From a virus, in the IMG/VR virus record IMGVR_UViG_3300023202_000395, positions 1-23,842 of that record: a DNA stretch of 23,842 bases; one strand, 5' to 3'. A model generated the notes under the pieces. It had not been told where the DNA came from. It did no database searches and was given only the letters and a program-made list of their open reading frames with translations. Shown here one piece after another: positions 2,503 through 9,568 of this stretch. The position numbers and the translations under genes are program-made. How positions within the stretch are numbered: the stretch's first letter is position 1; each line of letters starts with the position of its first letter.

Positions 2503-4569
2503 ATGAGGGAGGGAACCGCCGAGCAGGATCGACGCGAGCGGGATCTCGAGCGCAAGCTGGAGGCGGGGAAAAAGGCCCGCGACATCGGCCCGATCCCGGC
2601 GGTCGCCGACCCCGAACGGCGCGAGCGGTGCAGTGCCACTTTCCAGGGATTCTGCGAGACCTACTTCGCGGATGCCTTCAGCCTCGGCTGGTCCGACGAC
2701 CACCTGCGGGTGCTCGGCAAGATCGAGCAGGTCCTGACCGTCGGCGGGTTGTTCGGCTTCGGGATGCCACGGGGCAGCGGCAAGACCACGCTCTGCCGGG
2801 CGGCGGTGCTCGACGCGCTGCTCTACGGTCGCCATCCCTACGTCGTGCTGATCGCCTCGGCCGAGGACATGGCCCGCAGCCTGCTCGACTCGATCAAGCG
2901 GGTGCTGCTGGGCAACCCGCTGCTCGCCGAGGACTTCCCCGAGGTCGTCGCGCCCATCCGCGCGCTGGAGAACAACGCCCGCAAGCAGGTCGGCCAGCTC
3001 TGCGAGGGGCAGCCCACCTACATCACGTGGGCGGCGGACAAGCTCGTGCTGCCGACGATCCCGAAGTCGGCCGCCTCGGGTTCGATCATCACCGTCGCCG
3101 GTCTCGACAGCTCGATGCGCGGGCAGCAACACACGCGGATGGACGGCACGGTGATCCGCCCGTCCCTGGTCGTGCTCGACGACCCGCAGACCCGTCAGTC
3201 GGCCGGGTCGGTCACGCAGACCCGCCGACGGCTGGCGACGCTCTACGGCGACGTGCTCGGCATGGCCGGGCCGGGCAAGAAGATTTCCGGCTTCATGCCC
3301 TGCACGAAGATCTACCACGACGACCTCGCCGACCAGGTGCTCGACCCGGAGCGGACGCCGGAGTTCCAGGGCGAATGCACGAAGCTGGTGTACGAGTTCC
3401 CGGCCGCGGACGACCTGTGGGAGCAGTACGCCAAGCTCCGAGCCGATGGCCTGCGTGCCGGCGACGCCGGCCGCGAAGCGACCGCGTTCTATAACGCGAA
3501 CCGCAAGGCGATGGACAAGGGGGCGAGGGTCGCGTGGGCGGACCGCTTCAACGATGACGAGCTGTCGGCTATCCAGCACGCGATGAACCTGAAGCTCCGC
3601 GACGAGGAGGCGTTCTTTGCGGAGTACCAGAACGAGCCGGTCGCCGACCAGGACGAGGACCTGGTCGTCACCGCCGAGCAGATCATGCAGCGGACCAACG
3701 GCCGGCCCCGGAAGGAAGCGCCGGCGAGCACGGCCCACCTCACCGCGTTCATCGACGTGCAGGAGAAGGCGCTGTACTACGTCGTCGCGGCTTGGGAGCC
3801 GGGCTTCACCGGCGTGGTCGCCGACTACGGCACGTTCCCGGATCAGAAGCGTCGGTACTTCACGCTCCGCGACGCGAAGCGGACGCTCAAGCGGACGTAC
3901 CAGGGGGCCGGGACCGAGGGCGCGATTCAGGCCGGGCTGGAGCAACTCGGCGGGGAGCTGCTCGACCAGGCGTGGCCGGTGGCCGGGGCCGGCGGGCAGC
4001 AGACGCTGCGGATCGAGCGGCTGCTCGTGGACGCGGGTTACCTGCCGCAAGTCGTCGGCGCGGCCTGCCGGCAGCTCGGGTCGGCGGCGATGCCGAGCAA
4101 GGGCGTGGGTATCAAGGCCGGCCAGCGGCCGATGACCGCTTACCGCCGCCGGCCGGGTGAACGGCACGGGTGGCACTGGTACGTGCCGAGCATCGCGCGG
4201 ACCGCCGAGGTCCGCCATGTGCTCTACGACACGAACCACTGGAAGGCGTTCGTCCACGCCCGGCTCGGGACGATGCCCGGTGACCGCGGGGCGCTCACGC
4301 TGTGGGGCAAGTCGCCGACGACACACAAGATGCTCGCCGACCACGTCGGCTCGGCCGAGACCTGCATACGCACCGAGGGCTTCGGCCGGGTGGTGAACGA
4401 GTGGAATCACAAGCCGTCAAACCCGGACAACCACCTGTTCGACTGCCTGGTCGGGGCGGCGGTCGCGGGGTCGATGGCCGGGGCGTCGCTGGGCGAGCAG
4501 GCGGGCAACGGCCGATCATCAGGGGGGAAGGTGAAGCTGTCGGAGCTCCAGCGCAAGCGAGCCGCCTGA
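2503..4569 (+). CDS. phage terminase large subunit (GpA-like ATPase/nuclease)
   Basis: The 688-residue protein is the DNA-packaging motor that cuts concatemers and pumps DNA into the prohead through the portal. The N-terminal ATPase has a Walker A motif GMPRGSGKTT at 87-96 and a Walker B 'SLVVLDDPQT' at 221-230 (hydrophobic strand ending in D226-D227). The C-terminal half shows an RNase H-like nuclease pattern with three acidic candidates: 'LTAFIDVQ' (D418), 'LLVDAGY' (D510) and 'NHLFDCLVGAAVA' (D647). The last is typical of GpA-type large terminases. Length fits the GpA family (about 600-700). A lysine/arginine-rich tail ends the protein. It is directly followed by the zinc-ribbon gene (TGATG overlap). 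No separate small terminase gene is recognised upstream. Confidence 0.93.
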   Translation: MREGTAEQDRRERDLERKLEAGKKARDIGPIPAVADPERRERCSATFQGFCETYFADAFSLGWSDDHLRVLGKIEQVLTVGGLFGFGMPRGSGKTTLCRAAVLDALLYGRHPYVVLIASAEDMARSLLDSIKRVLLGNPLLAEDFPEVVAPIRALENNARKQVGQLCEGQPTYITWAADKLVLPTIPKSAASGSIITVAGLDSSMRGQQHTRMDGTVIRPSLVVLDDPQTRQSAGSVTQTRRRLATLYGDVLGMAGPGKKISGFMPCTKIYHDDLADQVLDPERTPEFQGECTKLVYEFPAADDLWEQYAKLRADGLRAGDAGREATAFYNANRKAMDKGARVAWADRFNDDELSAIQHAMNLKLRDEEAFFAEYQNEPVADQDEDLVVTAEQIMQRTNGRPRKEAPASTAHLTAFIDVQEKALYYVVAAWEPGFTGVVADYGTFPDQKRRYFTLRDAKRTLKRTYQGAGTEGAIQAGLEQLGGELLDQAWPVAGAGGQQTLRIERLLVDAGYLPQVVGAACRQLGSAAMPSKGVGIKAGQRPMTAYRRRPGERHGWHWYVPSIARTAEVRHVLYDTNHWKAFVHARLGTMPGDRGALTLWGKSPTTHKMLADHVGSAETCIRTEGFGRVVNEWNHKPSNPDNHLFDCLVGAAVAGSMAGASLGEQAGNGRSSGGKVKLSELQRKRAA

Positions 4570-4871: not shown

Positions 4872-5066
4872 GTGAGCGACCTGGCGCAGCAGATCGAAGA
4901 GAACGCCGCCGGCCCGGCCGAAGCCACGGTGGACAATCAGACCGTCCGCCGGCACTCGCTGCGCGACCAGATCGAAGCCGATCGGTACCTCGCGAGCAAG
5001 GCCGCGACCCGGAAGTCCGGGCTCGGCATCAAGCGAACGCGGGCCGTCCCGCCGGGGGCGGCGTGA
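4872..5066 (+). CDS. gpW-like small head-tail joining/head completion protein
   Basis: The 64-residue protein uses a GTG start. The upstream in-frame option is absent, and the ATG at 4861 is in another frame and stops at once. The C-terminal two thirds read 'TVRRHSLRDQIEADRYLASK' and then end 'VPPGAA'. This is the pattern I recall for the short proteins that sit immediately before lambda-type portal genes in GpA-terminase phages. They are often called gpW-like or are left uncharacterised. Its stop overlaps the portal start (GTGATG). Function as a head-completion or portal-associated protein is inferred from this invariant position rather than from visible catalytic motifs. Confidence 0.65.
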   Translation: MSDLAQQIEENAAGPAEATVDNQTVRRHSLRDQIEADRYLASKAATRKSGLGIKRTRAVPPGAA

Positions 5067-6526
5067 TGTTCGGGATGCTGAAGAGAGCGAAGGCCGCGCG
5101 GATCAGTGAGCGCGGGGGCACCCTCAACGCCCGGTACGACGCGGCCCAGACCACCGACGAAAACCGGCGGCACTGGGGCAACGCCGACTACCTCTCGGCC
5201 GACGCCGCGACCAGCCCCGAGGTCCGCCGCACGCTCCGGGCCCGGGCCCGGTACGAGACGGCGAACAACACCTACGCCCGCGGGATCGTCAACACCCTCG
5301 CCGACTACATCGTCGGCACCGGACCGCGGCTGCAGGTGCTGCTCGACGACGACGAGGCCAACCGCGTGATCGAGCGGGAGTTCACCCGCTGGGCGAGGTC
5401 GATCGACCTGGCCGCTCGGCTGCGTTCGATGAAGGCCGCCGAGACCGAGTCGGGCGAGGTTTTCGCGCGGCTGAAGACGAACAACGCGATAGATGGGCCA
5501 GTGCAGCTGGATATCTGCCTGATCGAGGCGGACCAGGTCGCCACGCCGACGATCGACCGGCCGGACGAGACCGGCGTCGACGGCATCGTGTTCGATGACG
5601 ACGGCAACCCGATCACCTACCACGTCCTGCGGCAGCACCCCGGCAGCAGCCGGTGGCTTGGGCTCGCGACGGAGTTCGAGCCGGTCCCGGCCGACCTGGT
5701 GATCCATCTCTTCCACGCGGCGAGGCCGGGCCAGAGCCGTGGCATCCCGGCGATCACGCCGGCGTTGCCGCTGTTCGCCTTGCTCCGCAGGTACACGCTG
5801 GCGGTCGTCGGCTCGGCCGAGCAGGCCGCGCTGATCGGGGGCGTGATCTATACCGACGGCCCGGCCGCCGAGACGGCCGACGTCGAGCCGATGGACAAGG
5901 TCGAGCTCGACCGCAACACGTGGATGACGCTGCCCGCCGGCTGGAAGCTCGGGCAGCCGAAGGCCGAGCAGCCCACGACCATGTACGGCGACTTCAAGCG
6001 GCACGTGATCGCCGAGATCGCGCGGTGTTTGAACATGCCGTTCAACATCGCGGCCGGCGACAGCTCGGGCTACAACTACGCCTCGGGCCGGCTGGACCAT
6101 CAGTCCTTCTTCCGCAGCCTGCGGATCGAGCAGCAGCGGATCGAACACGTCGTGCTCGATCGGCTGCTTGCCGCGTGGCTCGACGAGGCCGCGCTGGTCG
6201 AGGGGTTGCTGCCCGGTTCGGCCCGGACGCTCGACGCCGCCGGGGGCCGCATCCCGCACCAGTGGTTCTGGGATGGGTTCGAACACGTCGATCCGCTGAA
6301 GGAAGCGAACGCCCAGAAGGCCAGGCTCGCCGCGAACACGACGACGCTCGCCGCCGAGTACGCGCGGCAGGGGCTCGACTGGGAGCAGGAGCTGCGCCAG
6401 CGCGGCCGCGAGGCGGCGCTGATGCGAGAGCTCCAGCTCACGCTCGCCGACGCCGTCGACGACGACGCTGACGACCAAGACGACCCGGAGGACGCGGCCA
6501 GTGAGCCAGCCGACGCCCGAGTTTGA
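5066..6526 (+). CDS. phage portal protein, lambda family
   Basis: The 486-residue protein forms the dodecameric DNA gate at one capsid vertex and docks the terminase. Recognisable blocks run through the protein: 'YETANNTYARGIVNTLADYIVGTG' near 71-94, 'RSMKAAETESGEVFARLK' near 119-136, and 'LFHAARPGQSRGIPAITPAL', which is the typical lambda-portal 'G-Q-x-RG-P' block, near 218-237. 'GDSSGYNYASGRL' follows near 330-342 and 'WDGFEHVDPLKEANA' near 405-419. The acidic tail (DDDADDQDDPEDA) is typical of late portal C-termini. I chose ATG 5066; the GTG at 5063 would add one residue. The gene overlaps the capsid gene by 26 nt, implying translational coupling. Confidence 0.93.
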   Translation: MFGMLKRAKAARISERGGTLNARYDAAQTTDENRRHWGNADYLSADAATSPEVRRTLRARARYETANNTYARGIVNTLADYIVGTGPRLQVLLDDDEANRVIEREFTRWARSIDLAARLRSMKAAETESGEVFARLKTNNAIDGPVQLDICLIEADQVATPTIDRPDETGVDGIVFDDDGNPITYHVLRQHPGSSRWLGLATEFEPVPADLVIHLFHAARPGQSRGIPAITPALPLFALLRRYTLAVVGSAEQAALIGGVIYTDGPAAETADVEPMDKVELDRNTWMTLPAGWKLGQPKAEQPTTMYGDFKRHVIAEIARCLNMPFNIAAGDSSGYNYASGRLDHQSFFRSLRIEQQRIEHVVLDRLLAAWLDEAALVEGLLPGSARTLDAAGGRIPHQWFWDGFEHVDPLKEANAQKARLAANTTTLAAEYARQGLDWEQELRQRGREAALMRELQLTLADAVDDDADDQDDPEDAASEPADARV

Positions 6527-9131
6527 CGCCGCCATGAAGGTGGCGATCGCCGGCGTGCTGCCGGCGAAGGACGTGGCCGCTGCGAAGAAGTCGCTGCAGG
6601 CCGGCGACCTCGCGGAGCTCGACCTGCGCCTGCACCTGCGGGCGCTGGTGACCAAGGGTGAGCCCACCGACGCGGCGGCGACCTGCACGCTGCTGAACAA
6701 GGCGGCGCTCGCGTGGCTGATACAGCGGATGGGCTGCACGAAGGCCGCGCTGCTGGACGCGCTGCAGGAGCTGGCCAACGAAGCCATCGCCAACGGCGGC
6801 AAAGTCCGCGACGACCTGATCGAGAAGGACCACGAGCTGCTGAAGACGATCGCCGAGGTGCAGCACGCCGTCGTCGCCAGGCTGCCCCGCACCGTCCGCG
6901 ACGGCTCCGTGAAGGTCGCCGGGCGGATCGAACCTCTCACCGACGATGAATCGACGCCCTTGCAGATCGCGGCAGAACAGCCGGCGGGCAACTCAGACCT
7001 GCGGCTGCTGACCGCCGAATGCGCCATTACCGCGGCCGGGGCCGACGGAGGGTCGGCCCCGCCGCGGTTTTCGATGACCGCCTACAACGGCGGCGCGATC
7101 CGGCTCGACGGGTGGAAGCATCCGGTCGTCATCGACCTGCAGGGGCTCAATGTCCCGTCGCAGCGCCGGCCGATCCGCTTCAACCACTCGAAAGACCGCG
7201 GCGTCGGCCACACCGAGCGGATCACGGTCGCCGCCGGCGACAGCGGCCTGCCGGTCCTTGTTGCCGAAGGCGTGATCAGCCGGCAGACGGCCGAGGCGCA
7301 GGAAATCATCGCCAGCAGCCGCAGCGGCTTCCCGTGGCAGGCGTCGATCGGCGCGACCGCCGACCAGGTGCAGACGCTGCGGGCCGGGGCCGGCACCACC
7401 GTCAATGGCCGGGCCATCCAAGGCCCCGCCCACGTCGTGCGTCGATCGACGCTCGCCGAGATCAGCTTCGTCGACCTGGGCGCTGATGACACCACCAGCG
7501 TCGCGGTCGCCGCCCAGACCCCAGAGGGAGACCAGGACATGAACTTCGAACAGTGGCTGCGTGCGCGGGGCTTCGATCCCGCCGATATCAACGATGCCCA
7601 GCGGACGTCGCTGAAGGCGATGTACGACGCCGACCAGGACGCCGGGAGCGGTGGGGCGGGCGGCGACTCACCCGATCCCGCCGCCCCGGCGAACGGCGGC
7701 AACGGCGGCGTGCAGGCCGCTGCCTCGGCCCGTGGCAACGGCCCCGACACGACCGGCGACGGCGACCTCGAACAGGTCCTCGCCGAGGCCCAGCGGGAAG
7801 GCGAGCGTCGGCGGCGAATTACCGCCGCCACCGCCGAGGTGCTCGCCGAGCGGCCGGAGCTGTCCGACCACGTCGGCCGGCTCGCCAACTCGGCGATCGA
7901 GGCCGGCTGGGACAGCCAGCGGTACCAGCTCGAGCTGCTCCGCATCGGCCGCGGCCGCGGCGGGGCCGGCTCCGCCGTCCGCCGCGACGAGCAGCGGGAC
8001 GGCCGGGTCGTCGAGGCGGCGCTCTGCCTCGCCGGCGGGCTGGAGAACCCCGACAAGGCCTTCGATGAACCGACGCTCGAAGCGGCCGGCCGGCAGTTCG
8101 GCAGCGGGCTCGGGCTCGGCGAAACCCTGCTGATGTTCGCCCAGCAGAACGGCTACCGCGGGCACGGCACGTCCAACGTCCGCGGGCTGCTGCAGTGCGC
8201 CTTCAGCGACGGCCAGATCAACGCCGCCGGCGGCTTCAGCACGCTGTCGCTGCCCGGCATCCTTAGCAACGTCGCGAACAAGTTCCTCCGCGCAGGGTTC
8301 GACGCGGTCGAGAGCACGTGGCGGGCGGTCGCCGCGACGCGGCCGGTCCGCGACTTCAAGCAGGTCACCAGCTACAGCCTCACCGGCGGCTTCCAGTACG
8401 AGAAGGTCGGCCCCGGCGGCGAGCTGAAGCACGCCACCGCGGGCGAGGTCTCGTATACCAACCAGGCCGAGACCTTCGGGCGGATGTTCGCCATCACCCG
8501 GCAGGACATCATCAACGACGACCTCGGGGCGCTCACCCAGGTCCCGCGTCGGCTCGGCCGGGGGGCCGCGCTGAAGCTCAACGAGGTCTTCTGGAAGGCC
8601 TTCCTCGACAACGCCGGGTTCTTCAAATCGGCGAACAAGAACTACGCCGACGGCTCGGCCACCGCGCTGGACCTCGACGCCCTGACCCAGGGCGAGCAGC
8701 TGTTCCTCGACCAGACCGACCCGGACGGCAACCCGCTCGGCATCCTGCCGACGCTGCTGCTCGTCCCGAACGCGCTGCACGTCACCGGCTCGAACCTGAT
8801 GAACTCCACCGAGGTTCGGCCCGCCGGCGGCAGCAGCAAGACCGTCACCGCGGTGAGCAACCCGCACGCGGGCAAGTTCGAGGTCGTCCGCAGCTCCTAC
8901 CTCTCGACCGCCGGCTGGACCGGGGCGTCGACGAAGGCGTGGTACCTGCTCGCCTCGCCGGGCGACATGCCCGTGATCGAGGTGGCGTTCCTCAACGGCC
9001 GGCAACAGCCGGTCGTCGAGTCGGCCGACGCCGACTTCAACGTGCTCGGCATCCAGATGCGGGGCTACCACGACTTCGGCGTGGCACTCCAGGAGCCCCG
9101 TGGCGGCGTGAAGATGAAGGGTGAGGCGTAG
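6501..9131 (+). CDS. prohead protease-scaffold-major capsid fusion protein
   Basis: The 876-residue protein appears to join three functions. Residues about 165-340 resemble a phage prohead serine protease: 'IRFNHSKDRGVGHT' (H229), 'FPWQASIGA' (S282) and 'STLAEISFVDLGAD' (E320) are the expected catalytic neighbourhoods. Residues 347-490 form a charged, Gly/Pro- and Glu/Arg-rich scaffold-like segment. Residues about 500-876 look like an HK97-fold, Mu gpT-like major capsid protein ('FAITRQDIINDDLGAL', 'EVFWKAFLDNAGFF', ending 'MRGYHDFGVALQEP'). Residues 1-160 are an extra N-terminal domain I do not recognise. GTG 6501 is preferred because ggagg lies 9 nt upstream (6487-6491), whereas ATG 6534 lacks a ribosome-binding site. 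An internal in-frame ATG at 7539 has its own ribosome-binding site and may make the capsid precursor alone. Confidence 0.88.
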   Translation: MSQPTPEFDAAMKVAIAGVLPAKDVAAAKKSLQAGDLAELDLRLHLRALVTKGEPTDAAATCTLLNKAALAWLIQRMGCTKAALLDALQELANEAIANGGKVRDDLIEKDHELLKTIAEVQHAVVARLPRTVRDGSVKVAGRIEPLTDDESTPLQIAAEQPAGNSDLRLLTAECAITAAGADGGSAPPRFSMTAYNGGAIRLDGWKHPVVIDLQGLNVPSQRRPIRFNHSKDRGVGHTERITVAAGDSGLPVLVAEGVISRQTAEAQEIIASSRSGFPWQASIGATADQVQTLRAGAGTTVNGRAIQGPAHVVRRSTLAEISFVDLGADDTTSVAVAAQTPEGDQDMNFEQWLRARGFDPADINDAQRTSLKAMYDADQDAGSGGAGGDSPDPAAPANGGNGGVQAAASARGNGPDTTGDGDLEQVLAEAQREGERRRRITAATAEVLAERPELSDHVGRLANSAIEAGWDSQRYQLELLRIGRGRGGAGSAVRRDEQRDGRVVEAALCLAGGLENPDKAFDEPTLEAAGRQFGSGLGLGETLLMFAQQNGYRGHGTSNVRGLLQCAFSDGQINAAGGFSTLSLPGILSNVANKFLRAGFDAVESTWRAVAATRPVRDFKQVTSYSLTGGFQYEKVGPGGELKHATAGEVSYTNQAETFGRMFAITRQDIINDDLGALTQVPRRLGRGAALKLNEVFWKAFLDNAGFFKSANKNYADGSATALDLDALTQGEQLFLDQTDPDGNPLGILPTLLLVPNALHVTGSNLMNSTEVRPAGGSSKTVTAVSNPHAGKFEVVRSSYLSTAGWTGASTKAWYLLASPGDMPVIEVAFLNGRQQPVVESADADFNVLGIQMRGYHDFGVALQEPRGGVKMKGEA
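7524..7541 (+). promoter_or_regulatory. internal ribosome-binding site and start for the scaffold-capsid part
   Basis: GAGGGAG (7524-7530) lies 8 nt before an in-frame ATG (7539-7541, residue 347 of the fusion), exactly between the protease-like and scaffold-like regions. The peptide after it ('MNFEQWLRARGF') looks like a natural N-terminus. Use of this start would give a 530-residue scaffold-capsid product in excess over the protease fusion, in the manner of the nested lambda C/Nu3 arrangement. This is inference from sequence. Confidence 0.6.
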
Positions 9132-9151
9132 ACCGCCTCCCGGCCCTGAAC

Positions 9152-9184
9152 GCCGCGAGGCGGCCGCACACGCCGCCTCGCGGC
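9152..9184 (+). terminator. 12-bp perfect stem-loop after the capsid gene
   Basis: GCCGCGAGGCGG (9152-9163) pairs perfectly with CCGCCTCGCGGC (9173-9184) around a 9-nt loop. It lies 20 bp after the capsid stop, in the 107-bp gap before the decoration gene. No T-run follows, so it may be a leaky attenuator or an mRNA 3'-end stabiliser rather than a full terminator. Such a device would adjust capsid against decoration and tail expression. Confidence 0.55.
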
Positions 9185-9238
9185 TGCCTCGGCGACTGAC
9201 CCCAGCATCCCCAGAACACCAAGCGAAAGGACCCACCG

Positions 9239-9568
9239 ATGGGAGCCAAGTACAAGCACGAAGGCGCGGCGATCGAGTACATCCCCGGCCTCGACATCGA
9301 GGCCGGGGACGTGGTCATCCTCAGCGGCCTGGTCGGCGTCGCGAACCACCCGATCACCAGCGGCCAGGTCGGCACGCTGGCGATCGAGGGCGTCTTCGAC
9401 TTCCCGAAGGCGCTCAGCGGCGTCACGTTCAATCAGGGCGGCGACGCTTACTGGGACGACAGCGCCGACGTGGCCGTCGTGCTGGCCAGCGGCAACACGC
9501 TGATCGGCCCGATCACCAAGGCCGCCGGCGACGGCGACGAGTTCGTCAGCGTCAAGCTCAGCCCGTAA
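9239..9568 (+). CDS. capsid decoration protein, DUF2190-like
   Basis: The 109-residue protein follows the capsid gene. It has the pattern of DUF2190 phage proteins: an early 'GLDIEAGDVVILSGLVGVA', a central 'IEGVFDFPKALS' (the family's 'l-x-G-V-F-x-L-P-K' block), then 'FNQGGDAYWDD', and a final short strand. Members coat or cement the head surface. Length (about 110) fits. It is preceded by a purine-rich ribosome-binding region (gaaagga near 9223-9229). Confidence in the family is good; the surface-cement role comes from family knowledge. Confidence 0.8.
   Translation: MGAKYKHEGAAIEYIPGLDIEAGDVVILSGLVGVANHPITSGQVGTLAIEGVFDFPKALSGVTFNQGGDAYWDDSADVAVVLASGNTLIGPITKAAGDGDEFVSVKLSP

What the first reader, a model, noticed from the sequence alone, without database searches (positions are those of the whole stretch)
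6501..9131. Protease-scaffold-capsid polyprotein with an internal translation start
One 876-residue frame joins a prohead-protease-like domain (H229, S282, E320), a scaffold-like charged segment and a gpT-like capsid. An in-frame ATG at 7539 with GAGGGAG 8 nt upstream lies precisely at the protease/scaffold boundary. This suggests a nested gene making excess capsid precursor and a minority protease fusion, solving stoichiometry with one reading frame. The first 160 residues are an extra unrecognised domain.
Basis: partly seen in the sequence, partly recalled or inferred. Interest (0 to 1): 0.6.

Follow-up and report, generated by a model that had tools for sequence, protein, structure and literature searches.

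The report
Capsid gene nested inside protease fusion
This phage gene fuses the head protease, scaffold and major capsid protein in one reading frame, and a conserved ribosome-binding site exactly at the protease/scaffold boundary shows it very probably makes two proteins, the full fusion and a capsid precursor without the protease.

Summary
The 876-aa frame (6501-9131) holds an extra 160-aa N-terminus, a prohead-protease fold (residues ~162-326; best solved match T4 gp21, Z 14.2; H229/S282/E320 invariant), a helical scaffold-like segment and a gpT-like/Phage_capsid_4 capsid. The fusion itself is a known kind; no report of the internal start was found. ATG 7539 (GAGGGAG, 8-nt spacer) is the only one of 11 in-frame ATGs in the window with a Shine-Dalgarno (SD) match. 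In 72 relatives (<80% identical) ATG+SD sits at this junction in 83%; only the true N-terminal starts show anything comparable, although the linker is hypervariable (58 different pentapeptides before 59 ATGs). Below 60% identity, all 12 clusters have a start codon plus SD there. The signal exceeds a synonymous-codon null and recurs in proteobacterial, ClpP-type and several actinophage fusions. Bacillota relatives have separate genes, with the capsid gene starting at the same point (530 aa in FP_Epona, as in the internal product here). Best reading: a nested in-frame gene giving protease-scaffold-capsid plus scaffold-capsid. The product ratio is untested. New variant of a lambda C/Nu3-like device.

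The parts
6487..6491 (+). Shine-Dalgarno GGAGG of the full-length fusion (9 nt before GTG 6501)
   Evidence: sequence; score
6501..9131 (+). Full-length protease-scaffold-capsid fusion ORF, 876 aa, GTG start
   Evidence: NF045541 5.5e-78 (below curated cut-off); phrog_4523
6501..6980 (+). Extra N-terminal segment (about 160 aa), no confident family hit; shared only with L002 among the loci fetched
6984..7478 (+). Prohead protease domain (residues about 162-326); catalytic-type residues H229 (7185-7187), S282 (7344-7346), E320 (7458-7460)
   Evidence: model pLDDT 82; Z 14.2 to T4 gp21 5jbl; invariant residues
7524..7530 (+). Internal Shine-Dalgarno GAGGGAG, 8-nt spacer
   Evidence: conserved AGGAG-type site in relatives
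7539..9131 (+). Nested gene: scaffold-capsid precursor, 530 aa, starts MNFEQW
   Evidence: split homologue FP_Epona MCP is also 530 aa
7539..7643 (+). Small folded helical cap (residues 347-381) that begins at the internal Met; 12 of 72 non-redundant relatives carry the same M-x-F-[ED]-x-W-type cap
   Evidence: pLDDT 94-96 for residues 1-30 of the internal product
7539..8240 (+). Scaffold-like segment: cap, low-complexity linker, long helices (model residues 75-141)
   Evidence: no family hit
8241..9113 (+). Major capsid domain, Phage_capsid_4 / Mu gpT-like
   Evidence: related to the solved chains 8rkc and 9jod by sequence profile

Best explanation
One reading frame encodes two nested, in-frame products. 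Ribosomes starting at GTG 6501 make a protease-scaffold-capsid fusion. Ribosomes starting at ATG 7539 make the scaffold-capsid precursor without the protease. Both carry the same capsid domain, so the fusion would co-assemble with the short form, bring a controlled number of protease domains into the procapsid, and there cut off the scaffold parts and itself. It works like lambda C/Nu3 in using a nested start, combined with an HK97-like capsid precursor whose scaffold is its own N-terminus. Shown here: domains, conserved internal start and SD, agreement with the start of split-gene homologues. Inferred: that both products are made, co-assembly, cleavage, and any excess of the short form.
For:: along the whole fused frame only two places carry ATG+SD in most of 72 relatives, the true N-terminal start (81%) and the junction (83%; SD of 5 nt or more in 72%). 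RcKemmy-like set: 97% of 29. ClpP-like set: 5 of 5; 92% against 16% for other in-frame ATGs; below 60% identity, 12/12 have a start codon plus SD (Fisher 9.8e-8), RcKemmy-like 8/8 (3.5e-6); observed SD frequency exceeds all 300 synonymous-codon redraws (S1 SD>=5 0.81 vs 0.57; S2 0.69 vs 0.33); logo AGGAGAA with 9-nt spacer, 58 different pentapeptides before the start; most sequences lacking ATG have GTG+SD at the same place (V replaces M, so a start codon and not a methionine is kept). Bacillota relatives have a separate capsid gene that starts there with a strong SD, and two clades lost the separating stop but kept that SD; the same in RcKemmy, Gifsy-2, Chris1, CF55b, Pd_22F, RRH1, Penoan, Adaia, Schiebs, BlueFeather (clear) and mEp460, PBb002, B8b, Maggie, Yavru (weaker); a well-predicted small helical domain begins at the internal Met.
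Against: No expression or proteomic data were available. The window's own contiguous SD match is only moderate (GAGG/GGAG within GAGGGAG). Relatives L040, L397, L375 and L405 lack a clear junction start and L031 has a weak one. Emperor, SallySpecial and PensacolaC28 fusions lack it and EricDab has only a weak site, so it is not universal. In GC-rich genomes the -AG GAG- codons are partly favoured by codon usage (synonymous null 0.57). In S1 the SD keeps mostly one codon phase (56/59), so part of the signal travels with a conserved Glu codon.
Confidence: 0.82

Rival explanations
1. Only the full-length fusion is made; the conserved junction motif is a protease cleavage site or hinge, and the short capsid precursor arises by proteolysis.
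For: Prohead proteases do cut scaffolds and themselves (established for HK97, lambda, T4); a Glu lies 4-5 residues before the Met in most relatives.
Against: The residues around the Met are otherwise different in nearly every relative (58 different pentapeptides in 59 sequences), while the nucleotides AGGAG and the start codon are kept, including GTG in place of ATG; the signal exceeds the synonymous-codon null; split relatives start a gene there.
Confidence: 0.1
2. The internal site is a non-functional relic of an older separate capsid gene; fusion by loss of a stop left the old RBS behind.
For: Two Bacillota clades look exactly like recent stop loss with the RBS kept (L291/L308, L316/L319).
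Against: In the window's own family the site is kept at less than 60% protein identity in a hypervariable linker, which a relic would not be; lost ATGs are replaced by GTG+SD.
Confidence: 0.05
3. The internal start works, but its role is not capsid excess: the two products are made in similar amounts, or the short form is the minor one.
For: The predicted strengths of the two ribosome-binding sites are similar in the window and in the RcKemmy-like set.
Against: A capsid with one protease per capsid subunit would be unusual (general knowledge of HK97, T4 and lambda proheads); the window's internal start is ATG while the full-length start is GTG.
Confidence: 0.2

Closest known systems
Prohead protease/major capsid fusions: NCBIfam NF045541 (scaf_prot_MCP2) and NF045540 (ClpP-like), PHROG 4523 and 133; Pseudomonas phage MD8 gp5 (PMC8508860); Rhodobacter RcC phages (PMC8601537); small actinophages such as RRH1, Arthrobacter AN and Microbacterium EE (PMC5513430, PMC7302621)
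   Same: Protease, scaffold and gpT-like or HK97-like capsid in one open frame between portal and decoration or connector genes.
   Different: The passages read in these papers describe one gene and mention no internal start. The window protein scores below the curated NF045541 cut-off (263 vs 525 bits) and has a 160-aa N-terminal extension.
Lambda C/Nu3 and Mu I/Z nested protease/scaffold genes
   Same: In-frame internal start at the protease/scaffold boundary gives a protease-scaffold fusion plus free scaffold.
   Different: In lambda and Mu the capsid protein is a separate gene; here the nested product is scaffold plus capsid, and the protease has a T4 gp21/assemblin-type fold instead of the lambda ClpP/S49 type.
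HK97 gp4 (protease) and gp5 (delta domain-capsid)
   Same: Capsid precursor carries its scaffold as an N-terminal domain; the protease is encoded just upstream.
   Different: In HK97 they are separate genes; here the frame runs through without a stop.
Herpesvirus UL26/UL26.5 assemblin-scaffold pair
   Same: Nested in-frame products with and without the protease; related protease fold (Z 6-7).
   Different: The herpesvirus short form comes from its own transcript and has no capsid domain (own knowledge).

Membership tests
Prohead protease/MCP fusion (NCBIfam NF045541) | Score above the curated cut-off of 525 bits | tested here: not met
   263 bits, E 5.5e-78, residues 252-874; a divergent relative, not filed as a member
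Prohead protease/MCP fusion (NCBIfam NF045541) | Protease and capsid domains in one open frame | tested here: met
Herpesvirus-assemblin/T4 gp21-like prohead protease fold | Fold | tested here: met
   model pLDDT 82; T4 gp21 5jbl Z 14.2 over 141 residues, well above unrelated rows; many predicted phage prohead proteases in BFVD
Herpesvirus-assemblin/T4 gp21-like prohead protease fold | Conserved His and Ser (and acidic) residues | tested here: met
   H229, S282, E320 invariant
Peptidase S78 (Pfam PF04586) | Score above Pfam's gathering threshold | tested here: not met
   13.5 bits vs 21
Phage_capsid_4 / gpT-like capsid protein (PF25209, PF10124) | Score above Pfam's gathering threshold | tested here: met
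   164.8 vs 27 bits; 34.3 vs 20.1 bits
HK97-fold capsid protein | Fold of the capsid domain | tested here: inconclusive
   AF2 model of the capsid part has pLDDT mostly under 50; profile relation to the solved capsid chains 8rkc and 9jod supports it
Nested protease/scaffold gene (lambda C/Nu3 type) | Conserved in-frame internal start with SD at the protease/scaffold boundary | tested here: met
Nested protease/scaffold gene (lambda C/Nu3 type) | Both products detected in vivo | not testable with these tools
   needs proteomics or ribosome profiling
Nested protease/scaffold gene (lambda C/Nu3 type) | Nested product is scaffold only, capsid gene separate | tested here: not met
   the internal product contains the capsid domain
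HK97 gp5-type precursor | Scaffold segment removed by the phage protease | not testable with these tools
   no cleavage data

The most novel reading that the evidence does not exclude
Most 'protease-capsid fusion' genes of tailed phages (S78-like and ClpP-like proteases, Planctomycetota to Actinobacteria) are really two-product nested genes. A second RBS at the protease/scaffold boundary makes the bulk scaffold-capsid subunit, and the long form doses the protease into the shell as a modified capsid subunit; the device evolved repeatedly by loss of the stop codon between two adjacent genes while the capsid RBS was kept.
Probability: 0.65. Interest if true: 0.65.

Novelty: new variant of a known kind. 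Interest (0 to 1): 0.57.

Why it matters
Protease-capsid fusions are annotated widely as single proteins, which would imply one protease per capsid subunit. A conserved internal start removes that paradox, shows how phages can set protease dose with one frame, corrects start-site annotation for a large family (hundreds of contigs here), and is directly testable in isolated laboratory phages (RcKemmy on Rhodobacter capsulatus, RRH1, Maggie, mEp460). The parallel with lambda C/Nu3 and herpesvirus UL26/UL26.5 suggests nested protease/scaffold products are a recurrent solution in this virus lineage.

Tried and rejected
Chance: rejected by the control ATGs and clustering. Protein-level motif alone: largely rejected, although SD phase is mostly constant in S1 (56/59), so an argument from differing codon phase was dropped. 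Internal promoter: no sigma-70-like site found in 6301-9300, but planctomycete promoters are not covered; no Rfam match. N-terminal 160 aa as a domain borrowed from a neighbouring gene: no homologue in the fetched relatives except L002, only sub-threshold family hits. Capsid fold by AlphaFold2: low confidence with 46 sequences, not used for a fold search. Comparing strengths of the first and internal RBS across relatives: biased by picking the best upstream site, so mainly the window values are quoted. Literature: ten searches found fusion reports but no report of an internal start; the library lacks most subscription journals, so absence there is weak evidence.

Full report
WHAT IS THERE. The window is a 23.8-kb virus record with a head module: terminase large subunit (2503-4569), lambda-type portal (5063-6526), the 876-aa frame (6501-9131), a decoration/cement protein (9239-9568) and further head-tail and tail genes. 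The frame starts at GTG 6501 with GGAGG 9 nt upstream. Closest relatives lie in IMG/VR contigs and in genome contigs labelled mostly Planctomycetota, so the host is probably a planctomycete (inference).

DOMAINS. Residues 581-871 match Phage_capsid_4 (6e-48) and Mu gpT (2e-8); a profile of the internal product finds the solved gpT-like capsid chains 8rkc and 9jod. Residues ~204-349 match head-maturation protease PHROGs. The AlphaFold2 model of residues 141-346 (pLDDT 82) matches the T4 prohead protease gp21 (Z 14.2, 141 residues) and then herpesvirus assemblins (Z 6-7). H229, S282 and E320 are invariant. Residues 347-580 are predicted helical with a low-complexity linker, and residues 347-381 form a well-predicted small helical cap that begins at the internal Met. 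The first 160 residues are shared only with L002 (43%) and hit no family above threshold. The protease-capsid fusion as such is a known kind (PMC8508860, PMC7302621, PMC5513430, PMC8601537).

THE INTERNAL START. ATG 7539 is the only one of 11 in-frame ATGs in the window frame with an SD match of 4 nt or more. In 80 viral relatives the junction linker is hypervariable, yet an ATG preceded by -AG GAG- about 9 nt upstream recurs. Among 48 non-redundant sequences 92% have ATG+SD at the junction, against 16% of 389 other in-frame ATGs. Scanning whole frames of 72 relatives (<80% identity), only two places show ATG+SD in most sequences: the real N-terminal start (81%) and the junction (83%). At <60% identity all 12 clusters have a start codon with SD (11 ATG, one GTG/TTG). 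Observed SD frequency exceeds 300 redraws of synonymous codons from each gene's own usage. The site's logo is A(73%)G(85%)G(88%)A(93%)G(93%), spacer mostly 9 nt, before 58 different pentapeptides in 59 sequences; several sequences without ATG have GTG+SD there instead.

BEYOND THE FAMILY. RcKemmy-like fusions show it in 97% of 29. Fusions with a ClpP-like protease show it too: Gifsy-2, Chris1 and CF55b clearly, mEp460 weakly. In FP_Epona the genes are separate: protease of 176 aa and capsid of 530 aa with AGGAGGT, the same length as the window's internal product. In its relatives the capsid frame is mostly separate and always has ATG+SD at that place (43/43 representatives); four loci in two clades have a fused frame with the capsid SD kept. 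In eleven actinophage fusions, RRH1, Penoan, Adaia, Schiebs and BlueFeather have a clear junction start, Maggie, Yavru and EricDab a weaker one, and Emperor, SallySpecial and PensacolaC28 none at that place. The rule is therefore common, not universal. As a control, the scorer picks codon 309 in lambda C (AGGAGG), not the annotated nu3 start at codon 239, which has no SD; from memory later work also favours a short Nu3, which was not checked here.

MECHANISM. Two in-frame products: protease-scaffold-capsid and scaffold-capsid. Shown: domains, conserved start and SD, agreement with split genes. Inferred: translation of both, co-assembly, proteolysis inside the prohead, excess of the short form. 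The predicted strengths of the two RBSs are similar in the window, so the ratio remains open.

NOVELTY. Nested protease/scaffold genes (lambda C/Nu3, Mu I/Z) and protease-capsid fusions are both known; a nested start that yields the scaffold-capsid precursor from such fusions was not found in the papers that could be searched. It is graded as a new variant of a known kind, and it changes how a large annotated family should be read.

Noticed in passing
L019:2402-5959: The portal gene is in the same open frame as the protease-capsid fusion (1186 codons stop to stop), a possible portal-protease-capsid frame or an assembly error.
   Followed up: no
L415, L419, L420 (Gordonia phages Emperor, EricDab, SallySpecial): In these fusions the clear internal ATG with AAGGA lies before the protease domain, after an N-terminal extension of about 120 aa, so the real protease-capsid start may be annotated too far upstream.
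   Followed up: partly
L412:919-2238 (lambda C): The annotated nu3 start (codon 239) has no Shine-Dalgarno, whereas codon 309 (ATG after AGGAGG) does.
   Followed up: no
window 6501-6980: The 160-aa N-terminal extension is shared only with L002 and reaches no family threshold; its function is unknown.
   Followed up: partly
L040, L397, L375, L405: Relatives with fusion but no recognisable junction start: either other signals or a true single-product fusion.
   Followed up: no
L291, L308, L316, L319: Bacillota contigs in two clades in which the protease and capsid genes, usually separate, have become one frame with the capsid RBS intact: apparent recent stop losses.
   Followed up: partly
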